Source: Enterobacter cloacae complex sp. R_G8
Lineage (GTDB): Bacteria > Pseudomonadota > Gammaproteobacteria > Enterobacterales > Enterobacteriaceae
Length of the DNA: 64,000 nt
Direction of reading: 5' to 3'
Assembly (NCBI RefSeq): GCF_024599795.1
Contig: NZ_CP102246.1
Location: 2,418,001-2,482,000 of the forward strand
Within the stretch, counting starts at the first letter, position 1. The number at the start of each line of letters is the position of its first letter. The position numbers and the translations under genes are program-made. The notes under the pieces are model-generated. The model was not told the origin of the DNA, searched no databases, and saw only the letters and a list, made by a program, of their open reading frames with translations. This document shows positions 1 to 9,329 of the stretch, in pieces.

Positions 1-1944
1 ATTCAGTCGATTAAGGGCAATAAGGTGACCGTTACGACGGCTTACAGTGAAACGCCTGTGGCTGAGGCCGTATGGGTCATTGAGTCTGATGAGCTCTACG
101 CACAGCAGTATCGCGTTATTACGGTAACTGATAATAACGACGGCACGTTCACAATCGTCGGTGCAAATCACGATCCGGATAAATTCGATCGCATTGATAC
201 CGGAGCAATCATTGACCAGCGGCCGGTGAGCGTGATCCCGCCGGGCAACCAGTCGCCGCCTGCGAACATCGTGATCAGCTCGTTTTCTGTGGTGCAGCAA
301 AATATCAGCGTCGAAACGATGCGCGTGAGCTGGGACCAGGCGCAGAACGCTATCGCCTATGAAGCGCAATGGCGCCGCAACGACGGGAACTGGGTTAACG
401 TGCCGCGCAGCTCCACCACGTCATTCGACGTCCCCGGGATTTATGCCGGGCGCTACCTTGTGCGCGTGCGCGCAATCAATGCCGCAGAAATTTCATCCGG
501 ATGGGGCTATTCAGAAGAGAAAACGCTGGCGGGTAAAGTGGGCAACCCACCGAAGCCGGTTGGCTTCATCGCTTCTGAAAACGTGGTATTCGGTATCGAG
601 TTGAACTGGGGATTCCCCGCGAATACCGACGACACGCTGAAGACGGAAATTCAGTACAGCCTGACCGGTACCGAAGACGATGCGATGCTGCTGGCCGATG
701 TGCCTTACCCGCAGCGCAAATATCAGCAGATGGGCCTTAAGGTTGGGCAGATTTTCTGGTACCGCGCGCAGTTGGTGGACCGCAGCGGCAACGAATCAGG
801 TTACACAGAATGGGCGCGCGGTCAGGCCAGTATCGATGTGTCCGACATCACCGATGTGATCCTGGAGGAGATTAAAGACTCGGATACGTTCAAAGACCTG
901 ATCGAGAACGCGGTGGACAGCAACGAAAAAATTGCTGGTATGGCTGACGACATCAAACAGGCCAACGACGAACTGGAGCAGCAGGCGAAGGATATCGCCA
1001 AAAATGCTCAGGACGTCGGGAAGGTTCAGACCAGCGTTAATGAGCTTTCGAGTACGGTCGGTGAAGTGTCGTCTTCCCTCTCAGAGCTTGAGCAGACCGT
1101 TGCGACGGCTGATACCGCGCTGGGCCAGCGAATTGACAGCATCAGTGTTTCTATGGAAGGCATGACGGGCGGGGTTAAGAACTCAGCCATTGCCATTATC
1201 CAGAACGGGCTGGCACAGGTGGCTGCGCGTAAAACCCTGTCTGCATCGGTCGCCGGCAACAGCGCGAATCTGGACCGTATTGATGAGGTGATTGTCAACG
1301 ACAGGGAGGCAACGGCGCGCTCGTTGCTGAGCCTGCAGACGGACGTCAACGGCAACAAGGCATCCATCAACAGCCTGAATCAGACGTTCTCCGACTATCA
1401 GCAGGCTACGGCCACTCAGATAAACGGCATAACGGCGACGGTGAACGGGCATACCTCAGCCATTACAACAAACGCTCAGGCCATCGCGAACGTAAATGGT
1501 GACCTCAAAGCAATGTACAACATCAAAGTTGGTGTCTCCAGTAACGGGCAGTATTACGCCGCAGGTATGGGGATCGGCGTTGAGAATACGCCATCCGGGA
1601 TGCAGTCACAGGTTATCTTCCTGGCTGACCGCTTCGCTGTTACTCACCAGGCCGGCGCGACCGTTACGCTTCCGTTCGTGATTCAAAACGGGCAGGTAAT
1701 TATCAGGGATACGGTAATAGGTGATGCCACTATTACACGAGCGAAGCTTGCTGAAACAATCAGCTCGGTAAACTACGTTCAGAACCAGGCTGGCCTGTCC
1801 ATAAACTTTAGAACGGGCACGCTTGAGAACTACGGTTCAACCGCGGGCGAGGGGGCCATGAAGCAAACCAATCAGACCATCAGCGTTAAGGACGCGAACA
1901 ATGTGTTGAGGGTGCAGATCGGGAGAATCACTGGTACATGGTGA
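1..1944 (+). CDS. Phage host-specificity protein J (gpJ-like), C-terminal part
   Basis: The reading frame is open from base 1, so the N-terminal half of this usually about 1100-residue protein is outside the window. It corresponds to lambda gpJ, the tail-tip protein that binds the outer-membrane receptor and sits at the end of the tail. Visible are two fibronectin type III-like modules in roughly the first 270 residues, then a long helical, probably coiled-coil stretch rich in Asp, Asn, Gln and Ser, and near the end the DUF1983-type segment with the typical words AAGMGIGVENTPSGMQSQV and FLADRFAV. The last 60 residues should be the receptor-binding tip. The next gene starts 41 bases downstream after a good ribosome-binding site. 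The family call is firm; receptor specificity cannot be read from sequence. Confidence 0.93.
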   Translation: MQSIKGNKVTVTTAYSETPVAEAVWVIESDELYAQQYRVITVTDNNDGTFTIVGANHDPDKFDRIDTGAIIDQRPVSVIPPGNQSPPANIVISSFSVVQQNISVETMRVSWDQAQNAIAYEAQWRRNDGNWVNVPRSSTTSFDVPGIYAGRYLVRVRAINAAEISSGWGYSEEKTLAGKVGNPPKPVGFIASENVVFGIELNWGFPANTDDTLKTEIQYSLTGTEDDAMLLADVPYPQRKYQQMGLKVGQIFWYRAQLVDRSGNESGYTEWARGQASIDVSDITDVILEEIKDSDTFKDLIENAVDSNEKIAGMADDIKQANDELEQQAKDIAKNAQDVGKVQTSVNELSSTVGEVSSSLSELEQTVATADTALGQRIDSISVSMEGMTGGVKNSAIAIIQNGLAQVAARKTLSASVAGNSANLDRIDEVIVNDREATARSLLSLQTDVNGNKASINSLNQTFSDYQQATATQINGITATVNGHTSAITTNAQAIANVNGDLKAMYNIKVGVSSNGQYYAAGMGIGVENTPSGMQSQVIFLADRFAVTHQAGATVTLPFVIQNGQVIIRDTVIGDATITRAKLAETISSVNYVQNQAGLSINFRTGTLENYGSTAGEGAMKQTNQTISVKDANNVLRVQIGRITGTW

Positions 1945-1985
1945 CTGGAGGCCTCTCACGGGGCCTCTTTTTTTCAGGAGATACG

Positions 1986-2300
1986 ATGGCGGAATACGGT
2001 GTTCAAACATGGGACGCATCAGGCAAGGTTAACAACTATGGAATTAAGCCAGTCAGCGTTTGTGGCTTTCTGCAGCTGGCCGTTAACCAGAAAACAGGTT
2101 CTTTTTCCGTTGACCTTCCACCGGGTTGCAAACTGACCTACTTTCAGGTCATGAACGATGATAAGTGGGGAACGGGAAGGAGGAAGATCTCCATCTCTGG
2201 TGGTACTGCAACGGTGTCCTCAGTAGGGGATACCGACTATTCCGCAGGGACTGAACCCGCAGTTGCAGCTTTTCTCATTTTCCAGATCGAGAGGGCATAA
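1986..2300 (+). CDS. Small phage tail-associated protein (DUF6453-like)
   Basis: A 104-residue protein lies directly after gpJ. The ATG at 1986 is chosen because CAGGAG sits 5 bases upstream; the longer frame from 1938 would overlap the gpJ stop and has no ribosome-binding site. Its N-terminus (MAEYGVQTWDASGKV) matches an internal segment of the next protein (DYGMAVWDASGTL), so the two neighbours look like partial paralogues. It resembles the DUF6453 proteins often encoded between gpJ and the tail fibre in lambdoid phages. A role at the tail tip is inferred from position only. The stop at 2300 is immediately followed by the next ATG, which suggests translational coupling. Confidence 0.7.
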   Translation: MAEYGVQTWDASGKVNNYGIKPVSVCGFLQLAVNQKTGSFSVDLPPGCKLTYFQVMNDDKWGTGRRKISISGGTATVSSVGDTDYSAGTEPAVAAFLIFQIERA

Positions 2301-2972
2301 ATGGCGCAGTACGGCGGTTTACTGACGACGACGAGCGGTGAGGTATGGGTTACCGCGAACAGCTCGCCAATTGCATTACAGGCGCGAAAGACAGCGGCAC
2401 TGCAGGGAACATCGGGTTTCAATACAAAGGTGACGCACACCTTTCCCTCAGGTCAGCCCGTTGTGGCCTTCGTTCATTGCACGGTCGAGGTGGAAATCAC
2501 CCAGACTGTAAGCGGTAACACCATCACGATTGATTTTCTGAGACCTAATGCAACCGGCACAGCGTACGTTTATTTTTTCACAATTTTCCCCCAGACAAAG
2601 CCAGATTACGGGATGGCCGTGTGGGATGCATCGGGGACCCTGATTTTAACCCACGAGACGCGCACGCTCGGCGATGTCGTTACCATAGGTACTGCCGGAG
2701 TAGATGCAAGCTCAGGCTACAACATCAACACAACCCGGGCGGGGAAGTGGGCTTGCATGCCTGTTATGCTCGGTCTGATCACAGGGGTAGTTTCAGCGGG
2801 AGGGCAACCGCAGCCATATGTGGCAATTTACAAAAGCATGGCGAAACTTGAGGGAAGTAACACCCGAATTTACGCCAGACCGCAAACAACCCCCTCCGGA
2901 GGGCTGCAAAACGTCGCGTACTCAAACATGAGAAACGTCATCATGGCCATCAATTGCGCCAACTACGATTGA
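2301..2972 (+). CDS. Phage tail-associated protein (DUF6453-like)
   Basis: A 223-residue protein starts on the base after the previous stop, so the two are probably translationally coupled. The N-terminal about 95 residues are a beta-rich module of their own; residues from about 98 on repeat the YGxxxWDASG pattern that opens the preceding 104-residue protein. There is no signal peptide or membrane segment. The family is common between gpJ and the side-tail fibre in lambdoid prophages, and its function is unknown. A structural or receptor-accessory role at the tail tip is an inference from gene order. A hairpin spans its stop codon. Confidence 0.7.
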   Translation: MAQYGGLLTTTSGEVWVTANSSPIALQARKTAALQGTSGFNTKVTHTFPSGQPVVAFVHCTVEVEITQTVSGNTITIDFLRPNATGTAYVYFFTIFPQTKPDYGMAVWDASGTLILTHETRTLGDVVTIGTAGVDASSGYNINTTRAGKWACMPVMLGLITGVVSAGGQPQPYVAIYKSMAKLEGSNTRIYARPQTTPSGGLQNVAYSNMRNVIMAINCANYD

Positions 2973-2994
2973 TCGTTTTCAGCGATCAATTTCT
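2968..2994 (+). terminator. Hairpin at the end of the tail-gene run
   Basis: An 8-bp perfect stem (ATTGATCG / CGATCAAT, 2968-2975 and 2983-2990) with a 7-base loop overlaps the stop codon and is followed by TTTC only. The weak U-tract makes it a possible but not strong rho-independent terminator separating the late tail operon from the lipoprotein gene. Confidence 0.4.
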
Positions 2995-3079
2995 AATAAT
3001 TGATCTACCAAATCAATTATATCCCGTTGATTCATATTGTTATTGTGTAACCTTGTGAATGCCCTGGGATATAACCACT

Positions 3080-3313
3080 ATGAAAAACATGATTCTTTGC
3101 CTGGCGGTGGCGGTTTTGCTCTCCGGTTGCGCTGGCGTTATTGAGAAACAGCAACCCGTGTGTTCCGGTACCGCCCTTATCGGCGGGCAGGAAAACAGCG
3201 TCCAGATTTACGGAGTGCGTAAACAAAACAATCAGACCCAGTACCGCGCCGGTTATCCCTTTAACTGGACCTGGGTTAGCGCCAACACATTCACCAGCAC
3301 CACCTGCCATTAA
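3080..3313 (+). CDS. cor: Cor-like phage lipoprotein, superinfection exclusion
   Basis: A 77-residue lipoprotein: a short hydrophobic signal ends in the lipobox LSGC, so the mature protein starts at that Cys and is probably tethered to a membrane. The mature part (conserved words QPVCSGTALIGGQ, GYPFNWTWVS and FTSTTC) resembles the Cor proteins of phages phi80 and N15. Known: Cor blocks superinfection by FhuA-dependent phages by interfering with the FhuA receptor. The ATG at 3080 is chosen over 3059 because it starts the signal peptide. The gene sits between two hairpins and is therefore likely expressed from its own promoter in the lysogen, as expected for a moron. Confidence 0.75.
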   Translation: MKNMILCLAVAVLLSGCAGVIEKQQPVCSGTALIGGQENSVQIYGVRKQNNQTQYRAGYPFNWTWVSANTFTSTTCH

Positions 3314-3334
3314 CTCATTCTGTTTCAAAATAAA

Positions 3335-3359
3335 CCTCGCTCCGGCGGGGTTTTTTATT
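3335..3359 (+). terminator. Rho-independent terminator after cor
   Basis: The stem CCTCGC/GCGGGG (one G-U pair) closes a TCCG tetraloop and is followed by six T residues. It lies 22 bases after the cor stop and just before the ribosome-binding site of the tail-fibre gene. Confidence 0.75.
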
Positions 3360-3372
3360 GCCTGGAGAAAAT

Positions 3373-4620
3373 ATGCTTTATAACACTGGCACCATAGCCA
3401 TTAACGGAAATACCGCAACCGGCACCGGAACTAACTGGACAGCACCCGCCAGCCAGGTCCGCGCTGGCCAGACGATTATTGTCATGTCTAACCCGGTCCA
3501 GATGTTCCAGATTTCATCCGTGAACAGCGCTACATCAATGACGGTAACGCCTGCTGCATCACCGGCGCTGAGCGGCCAGAAGTACGGCATTCTGGTATCA
3601 GACAATATCTCGGTCGATGGGCTGGCGCAGGCCATGTCTCAGCTCATTAAAGAGTATGACGAGAATATTGGCGCATGGGAGACGTTCGCTACTACCTCAG
3701 CAAACCAGAGCATAACGGTAACCATTAACGGCACCCCCGTGACTATCCCCGGCATCGGTAAGTTGGCGCAGAAAGGGCCCAACGGTGCTCTCCCGATTGA
3801 CCAGGGCGGGACCGGTGCAACGAACGCTGCAGACGTTCGCACAAACCTCGGTTTGGGAAATAGCGCTTTATTGGATGCTCAAAGTTCCTGGGGTGATTCC
3901 GGTCAAAAGAAAGTTCTAACTGTGGGGGCTTTTGGTCTGGGGCGTGAAATTACTGAATCAGTTCCACTTAATACTATGAGCGAGTCCTACCCCTCATCGT
4001 TTATATGGTCAGTAGAGGACGCCAGCTACATGGGGGTCTCAGGAAGTCAGAGCATTACCTCAATCGTAATAGCTCGTGGAGGTAGACCAACTCGCATTCA
4101 TCAAATCTACACGTTAGGGCGGACTTTCTTCAGTTACCGAACACCTACAGGGTGGCTGTATCAGGAAGCCTACACAACGGGGAACACCACTAAGGCGAGC
4201 GATGGCACGCTAAAAGCGGCCTCACCAGTTGCCCGCATAGTAACGAGTCGCGATGCATGCCAGCGCGCTGACGTAGCCGAAGATGGTTTCTCCTGGTGCG
4301 GCTGCGGGACAGCAAACGCAGAGGCGGAGGGCATAACCCTTTCTCGCCTTGAGGCGGGCGTTTACCTGCTGATAGGTTCAGCAGGACTGGCTTCAGAGGG
4401 ATGGCAGCTACTGCCACCGATGGACCCTGGTGGCATGGGAGAACTTGGCGTGGTTGAAGCTGAGCAGACGGAAAGCGGTGGCCTGACAATCCGTCTTTTC
4501 AAGCAAAAATACATCCTGAGCGGTGAAGGTGAGATCATTAAAACCAAAGGTGAACCGATGGACGTACCGGCGAACAGCTGGATCGATGTTCGCCTTGATA
4601 TGCCTGACGATTCCTATTAA
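3373..4620 (+). CDS. Phage tail fibre protein with invertible C-terminus
   Basis: A 415-residue fibre protein in its currently expressed orientation. The ATG at 3373 follows GGAG with proper spacing; a TTG at 3358 lies inside the terminator T-run and is less likely. Residues 1-158 form the constant part, ending in the collagen-like linker word DQGGTGATNAADVRTNLGL that is typical of lambdoid and Mu-like fibres. Residues 159-333 lie in a 524-bp inverted repeat, and residues 334-415 are unique to this orientation. The crossover point falls in the word RTNLGLGN, the classic position for Gin/Pin-type fibre switching. The C-terminal part, with WCGCG and ending DVRLDMPDDSY, is presumed to contact the host surface. 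Inversion would replace the last 82 residues by 38 different ones. Confidence 0.88.
   Translation: MLYNTGTIAINGNTATGTGTNWTAPASQVRAGQTIIVMSNPVQMFQISSVNSATSMTVTPAASPALSGQKYGILVSDNISVDGLAQAMSQLIKEYDENIGAWETFATTSANQSITVTINGTPVTIPGIGKLAQKGPNGALPIDQGGTGATNAADVRTNLGLGNSALLDAQSSWGDSGQKKVLTVGAFGLGREITESVPLNTMSESYPSSFIWSVEDASYMGVSGSQSITSIVIARGGRPTRIHQIYTLGRTFFSYRTPTGWLYQEAYTTGNTTKASDGTLKAASPVARIVTSRDACQRADVAEDGFSWCGCGTANAEAEGITLSRLEAGVYLLIGSAGLASEGWQLLPPMDPGGMGELGVVEAEQTESGGLTIRLFKQKYILSGEGEIIKTKGEPMDVPANSWIDVRLDMPDDSY
3836..3861 (+). other. Invertase crossover site (gix/dix-like), left
   Basis: The 26 bases have the imperfect dyad AAACC-TC-GGTTT around a TC core and TTC / GAAA ends, matching the pattern of gix and hix sites recognised by Gin/Hin-type recombinases. 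The site overlaps the start of the left inverted-repeat arm at 3848, and sequence identity between the two arms begins exactly at the core dinucleotide, as expected if strand exchange occurs there. Confidence 0.8.
3848..4371 (+). repeat. 524-bp inverted repeat, left arm
   Basis: This arm is the reverse complement of 4734-5257. The encoded 174 residues are identical in both arms and every stretch compared base by base was identical. It encodes fibre residues 159-333. Arms this long are unusual for Gin-type switches, which normally share only the 26-bp site plus a short homology. Confidence 0.92.
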
Positions 4621-5257
4621 CCAGCGGATGAGCCAGGAGCCGCAACGTTGATCACTTCCTCTAAGGCGCTGACGCGGACAGCCAGCGCTTTGATTGCCGC
4701 CAGCGCATCGAGCATCAGAGGATTGAGGTCAAGCAGCAGGTAAACGCCCGCCTCAAGGCGAGAAAGGGTTATGCCCTCCGCCTCTGCGTTTGCTGTCCCG
4801 CAGCCGCACCAGGAGAAACCATCTTCGGCTACGTCAGCGCGCTGGCATGCATCGCGACTCGTTACTATGCGGGCAACTGGTGAGGCCGCTTTTAGCGTGC
4901 CATCGCTCGCCTTAGTGGTGTTCCCCGTTGTGTAGGCTTCCTGATACAGCCACCCTGTAGGTGTTCGGTAACTGAAGAAAGTCCGCCCTAACGTGTAGAT
5001 TTGATGAATGCGAGTTGGTCTACCTCCACGAGCTATTACGATTGAGGTAATGCTCTGACTTCCTGAGACCCCCATGTAGCTGGCGTCCTCTACTGACCAT
5101 ATAAACGATGAGGGGTAGGACTCGCTCATAGTATTAAGTGGAACTGATTCAGTAATTTCACGCCCCAGACCAAAAGCCCCCACAGTTAGAACTTTCTTTT
5201 GACCGGAATCACCCCAGGAACTTTGAGCATCCAATAAAGCGCTATTTCCCAAACCGA
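4617..5257 (-). CDS. Silent alternative tail-fibre C-terminus cassette
   Basis: On the minus strand a promoterless, start-less fibre segment repeats fibre residues 159-333 exactly and then ends in a different 38-residue tail beginning LDLNPLMLDALAAIKAL, probably a short coiled coil. It is convergent with the expressed fibre gene, the two ending 4 bases apart in overlapping stop codons (4617-4620). Inversion between the two crossover sites would join this tail to the constant N-terminus, giving a 371-residue fibre. No ribosome-binding site precedes it in the present orientation, so it is expected to be silent. Confidence 0.82.
4734..5257 (-). repeat. 524-bp inverted repeat, right arm
   Basis: This is the reverse complement of 3848-4371. 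Together with the 362-bp unique centre (4372-4733) it makes an invertible segment of about 1.4 kb. Confidence 0.92.
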
Positions 5258-5269
5258 CGTTTTATAGAT
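5244..5269 (-). other. Invertase crossover site (gix/dix-like), right
   Basis: Read on the minus strand the site keeps the TC core and the right half-site (GGTTTGGGAAAT) exactly, while the outer half is degenerate (AAAACG in place of AAACC). It lies in inverted orientation to the site at 3836, as needed for inversion rather than deletion. Confidence 0.7.
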
Positions 5270-5334
5270 TGCTCTTGAGCGGCCTGGCCGATAACTTCAC
5301 CTGATTTTTTTGCAGAAATAATTGGGTGAAAAAT

Positions 5335-5892
5335 ATGCAAATTGGCTATGTAAGGGTGTCAACAAATGACCAAAATACGGATCTTCAGCGACAAGCGCTC
5401 GAACGCGCAGGATGTGAGCAAATTTTCGAAGAAAAAATGAGCGGAACAGTGGCGAACCGGCCAGCACTGAAAAAGCTTCTTAAGACGCTGAAAGAGGGAG
5501 ATACGCTGGTGGTGTGGAAGCTTGATCGCCTTGGGCGAAGCATGCGGAACTTGGTACTGCTGGTCGACGAACTACGGCAGCGCGGCATCCACTTCAAAAG
5601 TCTTACGGACAGCATCGATACTTCCAGCCCAATGGGGCGTTTCATTTTCCACATCATGTCTGCCCTGGCCGAGATGGAGAGGGAGTTGATAGTGGAGCGC
5701 ACTCGCGCTGGGTTAGCCGCAGCTCGGGAGAAAGGGCGAATCGGCGGCAGGCGTCCGAAACTTACCCAGGAACAATGGGACCAGGCGGGCCGACTGATTG
5801 CGAACGGCGTGGACAGGAAGCAGGTGGCGATCATCTACGATGTAGCTGTATGCACACTGTATAAAAAATTCCCCGTTTCAAAAGCGGCTTAA
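5335..5892 (+). CDS. pin: DNA invertase, Pin/Gin/Hin serine recombinase
   Basis: A 185-residue serine recombinase very close in length and sequence to Pin of E. coli e14 (184 residues). The start at 5335 gives the family N-terminus MQIGYVRVST with the catalytic Ser9; a GTG at 5326 is an alternative. The resolvase catalytic core covers residues 1-135, with the typical words VVWKLDRLGRSM, TDSIDTSSPMGRF and ALAEMERELIVERT; the C-terminal helix-turn-helix ends KQVAIIYDVAVCTLYKKFP. Known: these enzymes act with the host Fis protein on a supercoiled enhancer complex to invert DNA between two 26-bp sites. It lies 66 bases from the right crossover site and so is almost certainly the enzyme that flips the fibre cassette. 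Confidence 0.95.
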   Translation: MQIGYVRVSTNDQNTDLQRQALERAGCEQIFEEKMSGTVANRPALKKLLKTLKEGDTLVVWKLDRLGRSMRNLVLLVDELRQRGIHFKSLTDSIDTSSPMGRFIFHIMSALAEMERELIVERTRAGLAAAREKGRIGGRRPKLTQEQWDQAGRLIANGVDRKQVAIIYDVAVCTLYKKFPVSKAA

Positions 5893-6029
5893 ATCTGCGC
5901 ACAAAGGGTTACGGGCATAAAATTTACAAAACTCATAATTCGAAGCGACATAGAAACTTAGAAACGAAACGGCGAAGCTTTAAGCAGTGACAGTTGAGCC
6001 CGGATCTTGCGGTCACTTACAAATAAAAC

Positions 6030-6049
6030 TACTGTATATAAAAACAGTA
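6030..6049 (+). promoter_or_regulatory. LexA (SOS) box of umuDC
   Basis: TACTGTATATAAAAACAGTA contains the full LexA consensus CTGT-N8-ACAG and lies 15 bases before the umuD start codon, so LexA binding here would block transcription until DNA damage. Only a few bases differ from the ideal E. coli sequence, so repression should be tight. Confidence 0.93.
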
Positions 6050-6064
6050 TTTGAGGTGTGCAAC

Positions 6065-6484
6065 ATGGAATTTATCAGGCCTGCAGAACTGCGAGAAATT
6101 ATCGCTCTCCCGCTTTTCAGTGATTTAGTGCAGTGTGGTTTCCCAAGCCCTGCGGCTGATTATGTTGAACAGCGTATCGATCTCAATGAGTTACTGGTTT
6201 CCCACCCGAGCTCAACATATTTCGTTAAGGCCGCTGGCGACTCAATGATTGAGGCGGGAATAAGCGACGGTGATCTGCTGGTAGTGGACAGCTCGCGCAC
6301 AGCTGAGCACGGTGACATTGTCATCGCCGCGGTAGAAGGGGAATTTACTGTTAAACGCCTGCAGCTACGCCCGACAGTCCAACTCATCCCAATGAATAGC
6401 GCCTACAGTCCGATTGTTGTAGGCAGCGAAGATACGCTGGACGTTTTCGGCGTCGTGACTTTCATCGTTAAATCGGCGAGCTGA
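6065..6484 (+). CDS. umuD: UmuD, self-cleaving subunit of DNA polymerase V
   Basis: The 139 residues from the ATG at 6065 match the exact length of E. coli UmuD, which decides this start over the GTG at 5987. The cleavage site Cys24-Gly25 and the catalytic dyad Ser60 (GDSM) and Lys97 (VKR) are at the canonical positions. Known: RecA filaments trigger cleavage to UmuD', which joins UmuC to form translesion polymerase V. The gene lies under an SOS box and 2 bases from umuC, so the two form an operon. As part of the prophage it can supply extra error-prone synthesis to the lysogen. Confidence 0.95.
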
Positions 6485-6486
6485 AC

Positions 6487-7755
6487 ATGTTTGCGCTCTG
6501 TGATGTGAATTCGTTCTACGCATCATGCGAGACTGTATTCAGGCCGGACCTAAAAGGGCGGCCGGTTGTCGTTCTCTCCAACAATGACGGCTGCGTAATC
6601 GCACGCAGCGCCGAGGCCAAGGCGGCTGGAATTACCATGGGAGAGCCGTTCTTTAAGCAAAAGGATTTATTCCGGCGCGCTGGGGTTGTTTGCTTCAGCA
6701 GCAACTATGAGCTGTATGCTGATATGTCGAACCGGGTAATGGCTACGCTCGAGGAAATGAGCCCTCGCGTCGAAATTTACAGCATCGATGAAGCTTTTTG
6801 CGACCTGACAGGTGTGCGTAATTGCCGGGACCTGACGGAGTTCGGCAAAGAGATCCGCGCTACGGTTCTGAAGCGTACGCACTTGACGGTTGGTGTTGGC
6901 ATTGCTCAAACCAAAACCCTTGCCAAACTTGCTAACCACGCGGCAAAAAAATGGCAGCGGCAGACTGGTGGGGTAGTTGATTTATCGAACATCGACCGCC
7001 AGCGGCGACTGCTTGCCCTAGTTCCAGTCGAAGACGTCTGGGGCGTCGGCCGACGCATTAGCAAAAAGCTCAACGCGATGGGTATCAAAACCGCTCTGGA
7101 CCTCTCAGAACAAAGCACATGGATTATTCGCAAACACTTCAATGTCGTGCTGGAGCGAACTGTCCGGGAGTTGCGCGGCGAGCCTTGTCTTGAGCTGGAA
7201 GAGTTTGCGCCAGCAAAGCAGGAAATCGTATGCAGCCGGTCATTTGGCGAACGCGTCACCGAGTACGAACAGATGCGGCAGGCTATTTGTAGTTATGCGG
7301 CACGTGGTGCCGAAAAGCTTCGTGGTGAGCACCAGTATTGCCGCTTTATCTCGGCGTTCGTGAAAACCTCTCCATTTGCGCTTAACGAACCGTATTACGG
7401 TAACAGTGCGTCAATGATGCTTCTCACCCCTACACAGGATTCCCGAGACATTATCAACGCCGCGGTAAAATGCCTGGACAAGATCTGGAAGGATGGTCAC
7501 CGGTACCAGAAAGCCGGCATTATGCTGGGTGATTTCTTCAGCCAAGGCGTGGCGCAGCTGAACCTTTTCGATGAGAACGCGCCGCGAGCTGGTAGCGAAA
7601 GATTGATGGAAGTGCTCGATCACCTGAACGCGAAGGATGGAAAGGGAACGCTTTACTTTGCCGGCCAGGGCATACAGCAGCAGTGGCAGATGAAGCGTGA
7701 AATGCTTTCACCGCGGTATACTACTAGGTATTCAGATCTTCTTAGAATTCGATAA
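6487..7755 (+). CDS. umuC: UmuC, Y-family DNA polymerase V catalytic subunit
   Basis: At 422 residues it has the same length as E. coli UmuC. The Y-family polymerase core opens with [14 protein letters not shown] (metal-binding Asp6) and has the catalytic SIDEAFCDL motif near residue 100; helix-hairpin-helix and little-finger domains follow, and the C-terminal region holds the UmuC-specific domain with QLNLFDE, a clamp-binding-type motif. It is cotranscribed with umuD from the LexA-controlled promoter. No truncation or missing catalytic residue is visible, so the pair appears functional. Confidence 0.95.
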
Positions 7756-8657: not shown

Positions 8658-9329
8658 TTATTCGGATATTTTGATTAGATCCGGCCCCTGATTCTTCACA
8701 TTACCCACAGCACGTGTCACAGCATGCCAGATAAACTTGTCTGCGGGAACAGCACCGTCGCCAACAATCTCTTCAGCTTCTTTCCCATCAACATCTTGGC
8801 GCATCCACTCGCGCGCTGCTTCTGGCGACAGAACCAGTGGCCGGCGGTCATGAATGTCGACTAGACCTTTATCAGCCGCAGACGTTACGATGAGAAAACC
8901 TTCGGCTTCGTCGCCGCGCTCGAATGGCGTGCTGCCAATCGCTGCCATGAAAATGGGCTGGCCATCTGCCCGGTGAATAAAGTAGGGCTGTTTCTTGTCG
9001 CCTTCCTTTTTCCATTCGAACCATCCATCGGCGAAGCAGATCGCACGGCCATGCTGCCAGAGGGGCTTAAACATCCTGCTGGTTGCAGCGGTTTCGACAC
9101 GCGCATTAATAAGTGGCGGTTTATCCCACCACCCGGGCGCGTAACCCCAGAAAACAGGATCGAGGTGCAACTGCTCGTCTCGTTCGCTCAACAGCAGGAC
9201 TTTAGTACCGGGAGCCACGTTGTACCGACCAATAGGTTCAGGTTCATAGGCAATGTCACGATCAGCTCCGTCGGCTAGGTAAGCCAGATACTCTTCACGG
9301 GTTTGAGCTTGTGCAAAACGTCCGCACAT
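8658..9329 (-). CDS. yedK: SRAP-domain abasic-site protein (YedK/HMCES family)
   Basis: A 223-residue SRAP protein. All active-site residues known from E. coli YedK are at the same numbers: Cys2 (after Met removal the N-terminal nucleophile), Asn75 in NARVET, Glu105 in WFEWK and His160 in IHDRRPLVL. Known: YedK and human HMCES form a stable thiazolidine crosslink with abasic sites in single-stranded DNA and protect them. The gene faces away from umuDC and has its own ribosome-binding site (GGAGG). Its neighbourhood with an SOS polymerase suggests a phage-carried damage-tolerance module. It is the last intact gene before the attachment site. Confidence 0.93.
   Translation of the reverse strand: MCGRFAQAQTREEYLAYLADGADRDIAYEPEPIGRYNVAPGTKVLLLSERDEQLHLDPVFWGYAPGWWDKPPLINARVETAATSRMFKPLWQHGRAICFADGWFEWKKEGDKKQPYFIHRADGQPIFMAAIGSTPFERGDEAEGFLIVTSAADKGLVDIHDRRPLVLSPEAAREWMRQDVDGKEAEEIVGDGAVPADKFIWHAVTRAVGNVKNQGPDLIKISE

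What the first reader, a model, noticed from the sequence alone, without database searches (positions are those of the whole stretch)
3836..5892. Invertible tail-fibre cassette with unusually long (524-bp) inverted-repeat arms
The expressed fibre gene and a silent minus-strand copy share 524 bp in inverted orientation, encoding 174 identical residues, and differ only in the last 82 versus 38 residues. Gix-like sites with a TC core lie exactly at the outer ends and a Pin-type invertase gene is 66 bases away. Classical Gin/Pin/Cin switches share only the short crossover site plus slight homology and swap whole fibre halves. Here the switch changes just the extreme C-terminus, and the arms also allow RecA-mediated inversion or gene conversion, which would keep them identical.
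Basis: partly seen in the sequence, partly recalled or inferred. Interest (0 to 1): 0.75.

Follow-up and report, generated by a model that had tools for sequence, protein, structure and literature searches.

The report
Phage fibre switch, spare gene overwritten
In this prophage's predicted flip-switch for tail fibres, the spare fibre gene is a copy of the active one joined to the last 38 codons of a different fibre, so flipping it would likely give a cut-short fibre; this is probably a scar of recombination rather than a new kind of switch.

Summary
Arms 3843-4371 and 4734-5262 are 529 nt with one mismatch, inside the crossover site; the inner 524 nt are identical. C-termini are 82 and 38 aa, the left site's 12-bp core equals Mu gix, and a Gin-like invertase starts 66 bases away.

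The claim that classical switches lack long arms is wrong: phage P1 has 636-nt arms (98.3%), and other long-armed cassettes turned up. Among close invertase relatives the window is still the outlier (median arm 24 nt, 81 distinct cassettes).

A sibling cassette, L098, explains it. It has the same gene A (99.3%) in the opposite orientation, facing a complete gene B with an S74 chaperone domain; B ends in exactly the window's 38 residues. In the window, B's body and chaperone are replaced by A's body, through an in-frame join sharing 1 nt. Right of the join the window is collinear with L098; from the left site to the join it is inverted.

Most likely the two orientations recombined and duplicated A. 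The silent gene keeps 49 of 133 positions of A's C-terminal domain and no S74 core, so inversion would probably give a defective fibre. Inversion in this strain and fibre function are untested.

The parts
3373..4620 (+). Expressed tail fibre gene (type A), 415 aa, with the PF25670 C-terminal domain
   Evidence: ORF; PF25670 1-132 of 133; PHROG tail fibre families; 99% identical to an Enterobacter fibre of 426 aa
3836..3861 (+). Left crossover site, 12-mer AAACCTCGGTTT at 3843, TC core
   Evidence: Same 12-mer as Mu gix; one of two in the window
3843..4371 (+). Left arm of the inverted repeat (529 nt, 1 mismatch)
4372..4733 (.). Unique middle, 362 nt: the 3' end of gene A and, on the minus strand, the last 38 codons from a type-B fibre
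   Evidence: inverted in the sibling L098
4617..5255 (-). Silent chimeric ORF: body of A (174 aa from the site) plus the 38-aa tail of B; PF25670 cut at profile position 49 of 133, no S74 domain
   Evidence: B tail identical to L098's
4733..4734 (.). Illegitimate in-frame join between A body and B tail, 1 nt shared
   Evidence: Comparison with L098; not found elsewhere
4734..5262 (-). Right arm of the inverted repeat
5244..5269 (-). Right crossover site, 12-mer AAACCGACGTTT at 5251
5335..5892 (+). Gin/Pin-type serine DNA invertase, 185 aa
   Evidence: PF00239 and PF02796; 76% to Gin and Cin, 78% to PinE; Gin structures 3uj3 and 4m6f

Best explanation
This is a Gin-type tail-fibre cassette, predicted to be invertible, whose silent gene consists of a second copy of the expressed gene's body joined in frame to the last 38 codons of a different, S74-chaperone fibre gene, most likely because the two opposite orientations of the cassette recombined with each other. 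Shown: the arms, sites and invertase gene; the un-rearranged sibling L098 in the opposite orientation with a complete gene B; the absence of B's body and S74 core from the window; inverted pairs among close relatives. Inferred: an ancestor like L098 was held in both orientations by the invertase; a nearly homology-free crossover then joined the left part of an A-expressed copy to the right part of an A-silent copy, which duplicated A's body (the long arms) and deleted B's. The invertase would still flip the 1.4-kb segment, now between a full fibre A and a version cut inside its C-terminal domain that is likely non-functional. General recombination between the arms could also invert the 362-nt middle; that is untested.
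For: L098 maps to the window in three pieces: 1-3866 collinear 94.6%, 3843-4734 inverted 99.3%, 4734-7737 collinear 96.0%, with 99.6-100% per 250 nt from 4734 to about 6733, as a crossover between opposite orientations predicts. L098 expresses a 368-aa B with PF13884 (265-320) and the identical 38-residue tail, and has a full A opposite, PF25670 1-132 of 133. B-type genes with the same kind of tail carry PF13884 in 5 of 5 other relatives scanned. Both window arms share the base that differs from L098 (4077 and 5028), so both come from one A allele. The join shares 1 nt. 4 of 11 clusters of near-identical segments hold both orientations. Among 81 distinct cassettes only the window has arms above 200 nt at 95% or more.
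Against: The product cannot tell crossover between orientations from one-ended gene conversion. No reciprocal product was found. L098's left flank is only 94.6% identical, so it is a cousin, not the ancestor. The order of events rests on one sibling. The two long-armed cassettes L225 and L300 have other maps with repeated constant regions and do not repeat this event. That the chimeric product is defective is not shown: the structure models were poor and a coiled-coil-like tail might still cap a fibre.
Confidence: 0.55

Rival explanations
1. Same outcome by one-ended gene conversion or template switching in a single molecule: repair near the right site copied about 529 nt of gene A into the silent place and rejoined illegitimately inside gene B.
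For: Homology at the site end (short arms of 12-90 nt in nearly all of the surveyed relatives) and almost none at the other end is what one-ended copying would leave.
Against: Nothing in the sequence favours it over a crossover between orientations; the collinearity right of the join fits both.
Confidence: 0.25
2. One reading: a working switch of only the extreme C-terminus, with long arms kept identical on purpose by RecA.
For: Both ORFs are intact and in frame, the sites and the invertase gene look intact, and P1 shows that long arms can persist in a working switch.
Against: The 38-residue tail is the end of an S74 fibre whose chaperone core is missing, and PF25670 is cut at 49 of 133. Among the proteins listed and inspected the chimera occurs only as the window's own, and the join pattern only in the own genome.
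Confidence: 0.12
3. Assembly artefact: mixed orientations in the culture were collapsed so that gene A was written twice and B lost.
For: A culture with both orientations would contain A on either side; the small deletion against L098 near 4615 shows that base-level errors are conceivable.
Against: The join shares 1 nt, so an assembler has no overlap on which to merge A's body with B's tail; the assembly is a single contig of 4,952,526 bases. No reads were available, so this is not excluded.
Confidence: 0.06

Closest known systems
Phage P1 C segment (Cin/cix)
   Same: Serine invertase (76% identical), inverted sites at the outer ends of long near-identical arms (636 nt, 98.3%, mismatches only in the site and the innermost 67 nt), fibre gene with constant and variable parts
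   Different: P1's middle holds full variable fibre halves and two assembly genes, both alternatives complete (annotation); here the middle is 362 nt and the silent copy is truncated. I did not compare the fibre sequences of P1 and the window.
Phage Mu G segment (Gin/gix)
   Same: Same 12-bp core AAACCTCGGTTT; Gin 76% identical
   Different: Arms 39 nt; full fibre variable parts and assembly genes U and U'
e14 P segment (PinE)
   Same: Invertase 78% identical, inverted fibre genes
   Different: Arms 21 nt; assembly genes tfaP and tfaE inside
Lambdoid fibre cassettes with the same invertase (viral contig L098, phage LLS, E. coli ABWA45 prophage)
   Same: Same position in the tail module, same sites, invertase 95-100% identical, fibres of PF25670 or S74 type
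   Different: Two different fibre variable parts in each and short arms: 24, 57 and 16 nt

Membership tests
Hin/Gin/Cin/Pin serine DNA invertases | Resolvase N-terminal domain plus C-terminal HTH_7 | tested here: met
   PF00239 E 9.7e-51 and PF02796 E 3.3e-13
Hin/Gin/Cin/Pin serine DNA invertases | Close sequence identity to Gin, Cin, PinE, with the serine at position 9 (its catalytic role is recalled) | tested here: met
   76%, 76%, 78%; serine aligned with Gin 4m6f
Hin/Gin/Cin/Pin serine DNA invertases | Two inverted 26-bp sites with a matching 2-bp core around the segment | tested here: met
Hin/Gin/Cin/Pin serine DNA invertases | Fis-bound enhancer in the 5' part of the gene | tested here: inconclusive
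   5' ends align with gin, cin and pinE, but a crude Fis-site scan is not decisive
Hin/Gin/Cin/Pin serine DNA invertases | Catalysed inversion | not testable with these tools
   No reads or cultures; in relatives 4 of 11 near-identical clusters hold both orientations
G/C/P-type tail-fibre switch | Constant fibre N-terminus outside, alternative C-terminal parts inside the segment | tested here: met
G/C/P-type tail-fibre switch | Both alternatives carry a complete C-terminal domain | tested here: not met
   Silent ORF: PF25670 1-49 of 133, no PF13884; L098 has both complete
G/C/P-type tail-fibre switch | Fibre assembly genes inside the segment (Mu, P1, e14) | tested here: not met
   The 362-nt middle holds only the two fibre ends
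P1-type long-arm switch | Arms above 500 nt with sites at the outer ends | tested here: met
   529 nt against 636 nt in P1
S74-chaperone fibres (silent ORF) | Peptidase_S74 domain PF13884 near the C-terminus | tested here: not met
   Absent from the window's silent ORF up to E 1; present in L098's B

The most novel reading that the evidence does not exclude
Phase-variable fibre switches erode themselves: by keeping both orientations in one phage population the invertase supplies the partners for crossover between orientations, which duplicates one fibre allele, deletes the other and leaves long arms. Long arms in general, P1's included, would be footprints of such events, and they open a second, RecA-driven way to invert the middle.
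Probability: 0.3. Interest if true: 0.55.

Novelty: new variant of a known kind. Interest (0 to 1): 0.38.

Why it matters
It shows, with a close un-rearranged cousin to compare, how a two-fibre switch can lose one fibre and gain long inverted arms, which may explain why arm length varies so much from cassette to cassette (about 12 to 880 nt in the two surveys). It also warns against reading every pair of convergent fibre ORFs as two working host-range alternatives.

Tried and rejected
Structure: AlphaFold models of the fibre (mean pLDDT 53.3) and of the silent ORF (54.8) were poor. A Foldseek search with the fibre model gave 0 matches at E <= 0.001; the best was an R2-type pyocin fibre, E 0.016. 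I draw nothing from them.

Enhancer: a crude Fis-site scan was inconclusive.

Independent cases: L225 and L300 have long near-identical arms (618 nt 100%; 882 nt 99.9%), but their maps include repeated constant regions and L225's left arm starts at base 1 of its locus, so I do not count them as the same event. Among P1-like elements arm length varies from about 150 to 700 nt; I could not decide the direction of change.

Literature: eight searches listed no paper whose title or abstract start concerns growth of switch arms by recombination between orientations; only three papers were opened, for passages. Two P1 papers are not held, so what they say of the repeats is not used.

Considered and dropped: chance (a 524-nt perfect repeat); an ancestral P1-like design (close relatives have short arms).

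Full report
Setting. The window is part of a 4.95-Mb single-contig genome. The genus is very probably Enterobacter: genomes that the search calls same-genus share exact contig lengths with records titled Enterobacter vonholyi and E. quasihormaechei (40466 and 271526 bases), although one same-genus contig (1256082 bases) is titled Lelliottia nimipressuralis. The cassette lies at the end of a tail module: a J-type tail protein, two small proteins, a Cor superinfection-exclusion protein, then the fibre gene, the silent gene and the invertase, much as in phages mEpX1 and LLS.

Observation. Everything measurable in the finding holds: arms of 529 nt with one mismatch, inside the site; 174 shared residues and tails of 82 and 38 residues; two inverted sites with TC/GA cores, the only such 12-mers in the window. 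The invertase is a Gin relative (76% to Gin and Cin, 78% to PinE) with Resolvase and HTH_7 domains and the serine at position 9.

Are long arms new? No. The P1 C segment has 636-nt arms at 98.3%, with mismatches only in the site and in the innermost 67 nt; Mu has 39 nt and e14 21 nt. I surveyed relatives in two sets. Set 1: the window, 20 stretches of same-genus genomes, 36 genome contigs, 80 viral contigs (the best 80 of 599) and 5 phage or E. coli records, 142 loci in all. 88 of 142 had the 5' end of the invertase and both sites of the expected form within 4 kb, 81 of them distinct; the rest were dropped before the count. Where a cassette has three sites, the outermost left one was used. Median arm 24 nt; above 100 nt only the window (529, 99.8%), L113 (426, 76.1%) and L155 (181, 99.4%). 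Set 2: viral contigs found with Gin, Cin and PinE (80 listed per search, overlapping), 166 loci, 98 with an inverted repeat anchored at the invertase, 88 distinct; three had at least 200 nt at 95% or more: L300 (882), L267 (702, P1-like) and L225 (618). Long arms are rare but recurrent, and the window is the outlier of its own family.

What the silent gene is. In relatives the 38-residue kind of tail belongs to a different fibre gene, B, with a Peptidase_S74 domain before it (5 of 5 scanned: L041, L044, L007, L008, L009). Gene A, with the PF25670 C-terminus, lies opposite a B-type tail in L041, L007, L008 and L059; L044 and L009 carry other partners. The closest relative is the viral contig L098. 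Its expressed gene is a complete B (368 aa, PF13884 at 265-320) whose last 38 residues equal the window's letter for letter; its silent gene is a full A (PF25670 1-132 of 133). The window maps to it in three pieces: 1-3866 collinear (94.6%), 3843-4734 inverted (99.3%), 4734-7737 collinear (96.0%, but 99.6-100% per 250 nt to about 6733). B's body and S74 core are missing from the window, where a second body of A stands. The join shares a single base and is in frame. Both window arms carry the same base where L098 differs (4077 and 5028), so both come from one A allele.

Is the chimera found elsewhere? The exact 23-mer across the join is in no viral contig. A degenerate pattern for the join matched only the own genome among 392 family genomes and among 61 genus genomes (overlapping sets). 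Of 290 proteins similar to the silent ORF, 120 were listed; of 3561 similar to the expressed fibre, 120 were listed, each with PF25670 and full coverage of the query. Among these 240 sequences the LDLNP-like motif of the B tail occurs in one, P0004, the window's own. Proteins outside the listed rows were not inspected, and a full-length chimera of 371 aa would have been at the length limit of the first search.

Does this family switch? Among near-identical segments (at least 95% over at least 95% of length), 4 of 11 clusters hold both orientations, for example L114 and L120, 99.7% identical over all 1401 nt in opposite orientation. At least four of the other seven clusters contain the same genome fetched twice, so 4 of 11 is a low figure. 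Inversion of the related e14 segment in cultures is reported (PMC4272514, passages; PMC12529663, passages). PMC6906374 (passages) reports P1-like plasmids whose C segment is incomplete or greatly modified, so decay of such switches has been seen before.

Mechanism. A population that holds both orientations contains molecules with A on the left and others with A on the right. One crossover, between B in an A-left molecule and A in an A-right molecule, gives exactly the window: left flank, full A, tail of B, body of A, right site, invertase. One-ended copying of A into the silent place gives the same product and cannot be excluded. Either way the arms are a by-product. The invertase would still invert the whole segment (inferred from intact sites and gene), but the alternative product would keep only 49 of 133 profile positions of the C-terminal domain and no chaperone core, so I expect a defective fibre; this is untested.

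Verdict. A known kind of switch with a real, unusual lesion: the silent fibre gene carries the expressed gene's body in place of its own. The long arms are explained by that event, and P1 is a clear precedent for arms of this length.

Noticed in passing
window 4610-4620: Gene A ends 11 residues earlier than in L098 and in the closest listed protein (415 against 426 aa); the alignment shows a net loss of two bases near 4615. Real truncation or base-calling error cannot be told apart without reads.
   Followed up: partly
G000:C1:3907020-3907654 (L004): A second, diverged invertase-like ORF (134 aa) with a site-like stretch 91% identical over 32 nt to the window's right site lies elsewhere in the same genome.
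   Followed up: partly
L007, L042, L047, L122, L127, L155, L156, L164: Cassettes with three crossover sites, so possibly more than two arrangements, in the manner of multi-site shufflers.
   Followed up: no
L010 (phage HK75): HK75 carries fibre A (body 97% identical in protein) as a single gene with no invertase match in the fetched stretch, so the allele also exists outside switches.
   Followed up: partly
window 6065-7755: A UmuDC-like pair (S24 peptidase PF00717; Y-family polymerase domains PF00817, PF11799, PF13438) follows the invertase; an SRAP-family gene lies at 8658-9329.
   Followed up: partly
window near 6733: Identity to L098 drops from 99.6-100% to 85-92% at about 6733, a mosaic boundary.
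   Followed up: no
L225, L300, L330: Other cassettes with long near-identical repeats have repeated stretches of the constant fibre region between or beside the sites; geometry not resolved.
   Followed up: partly
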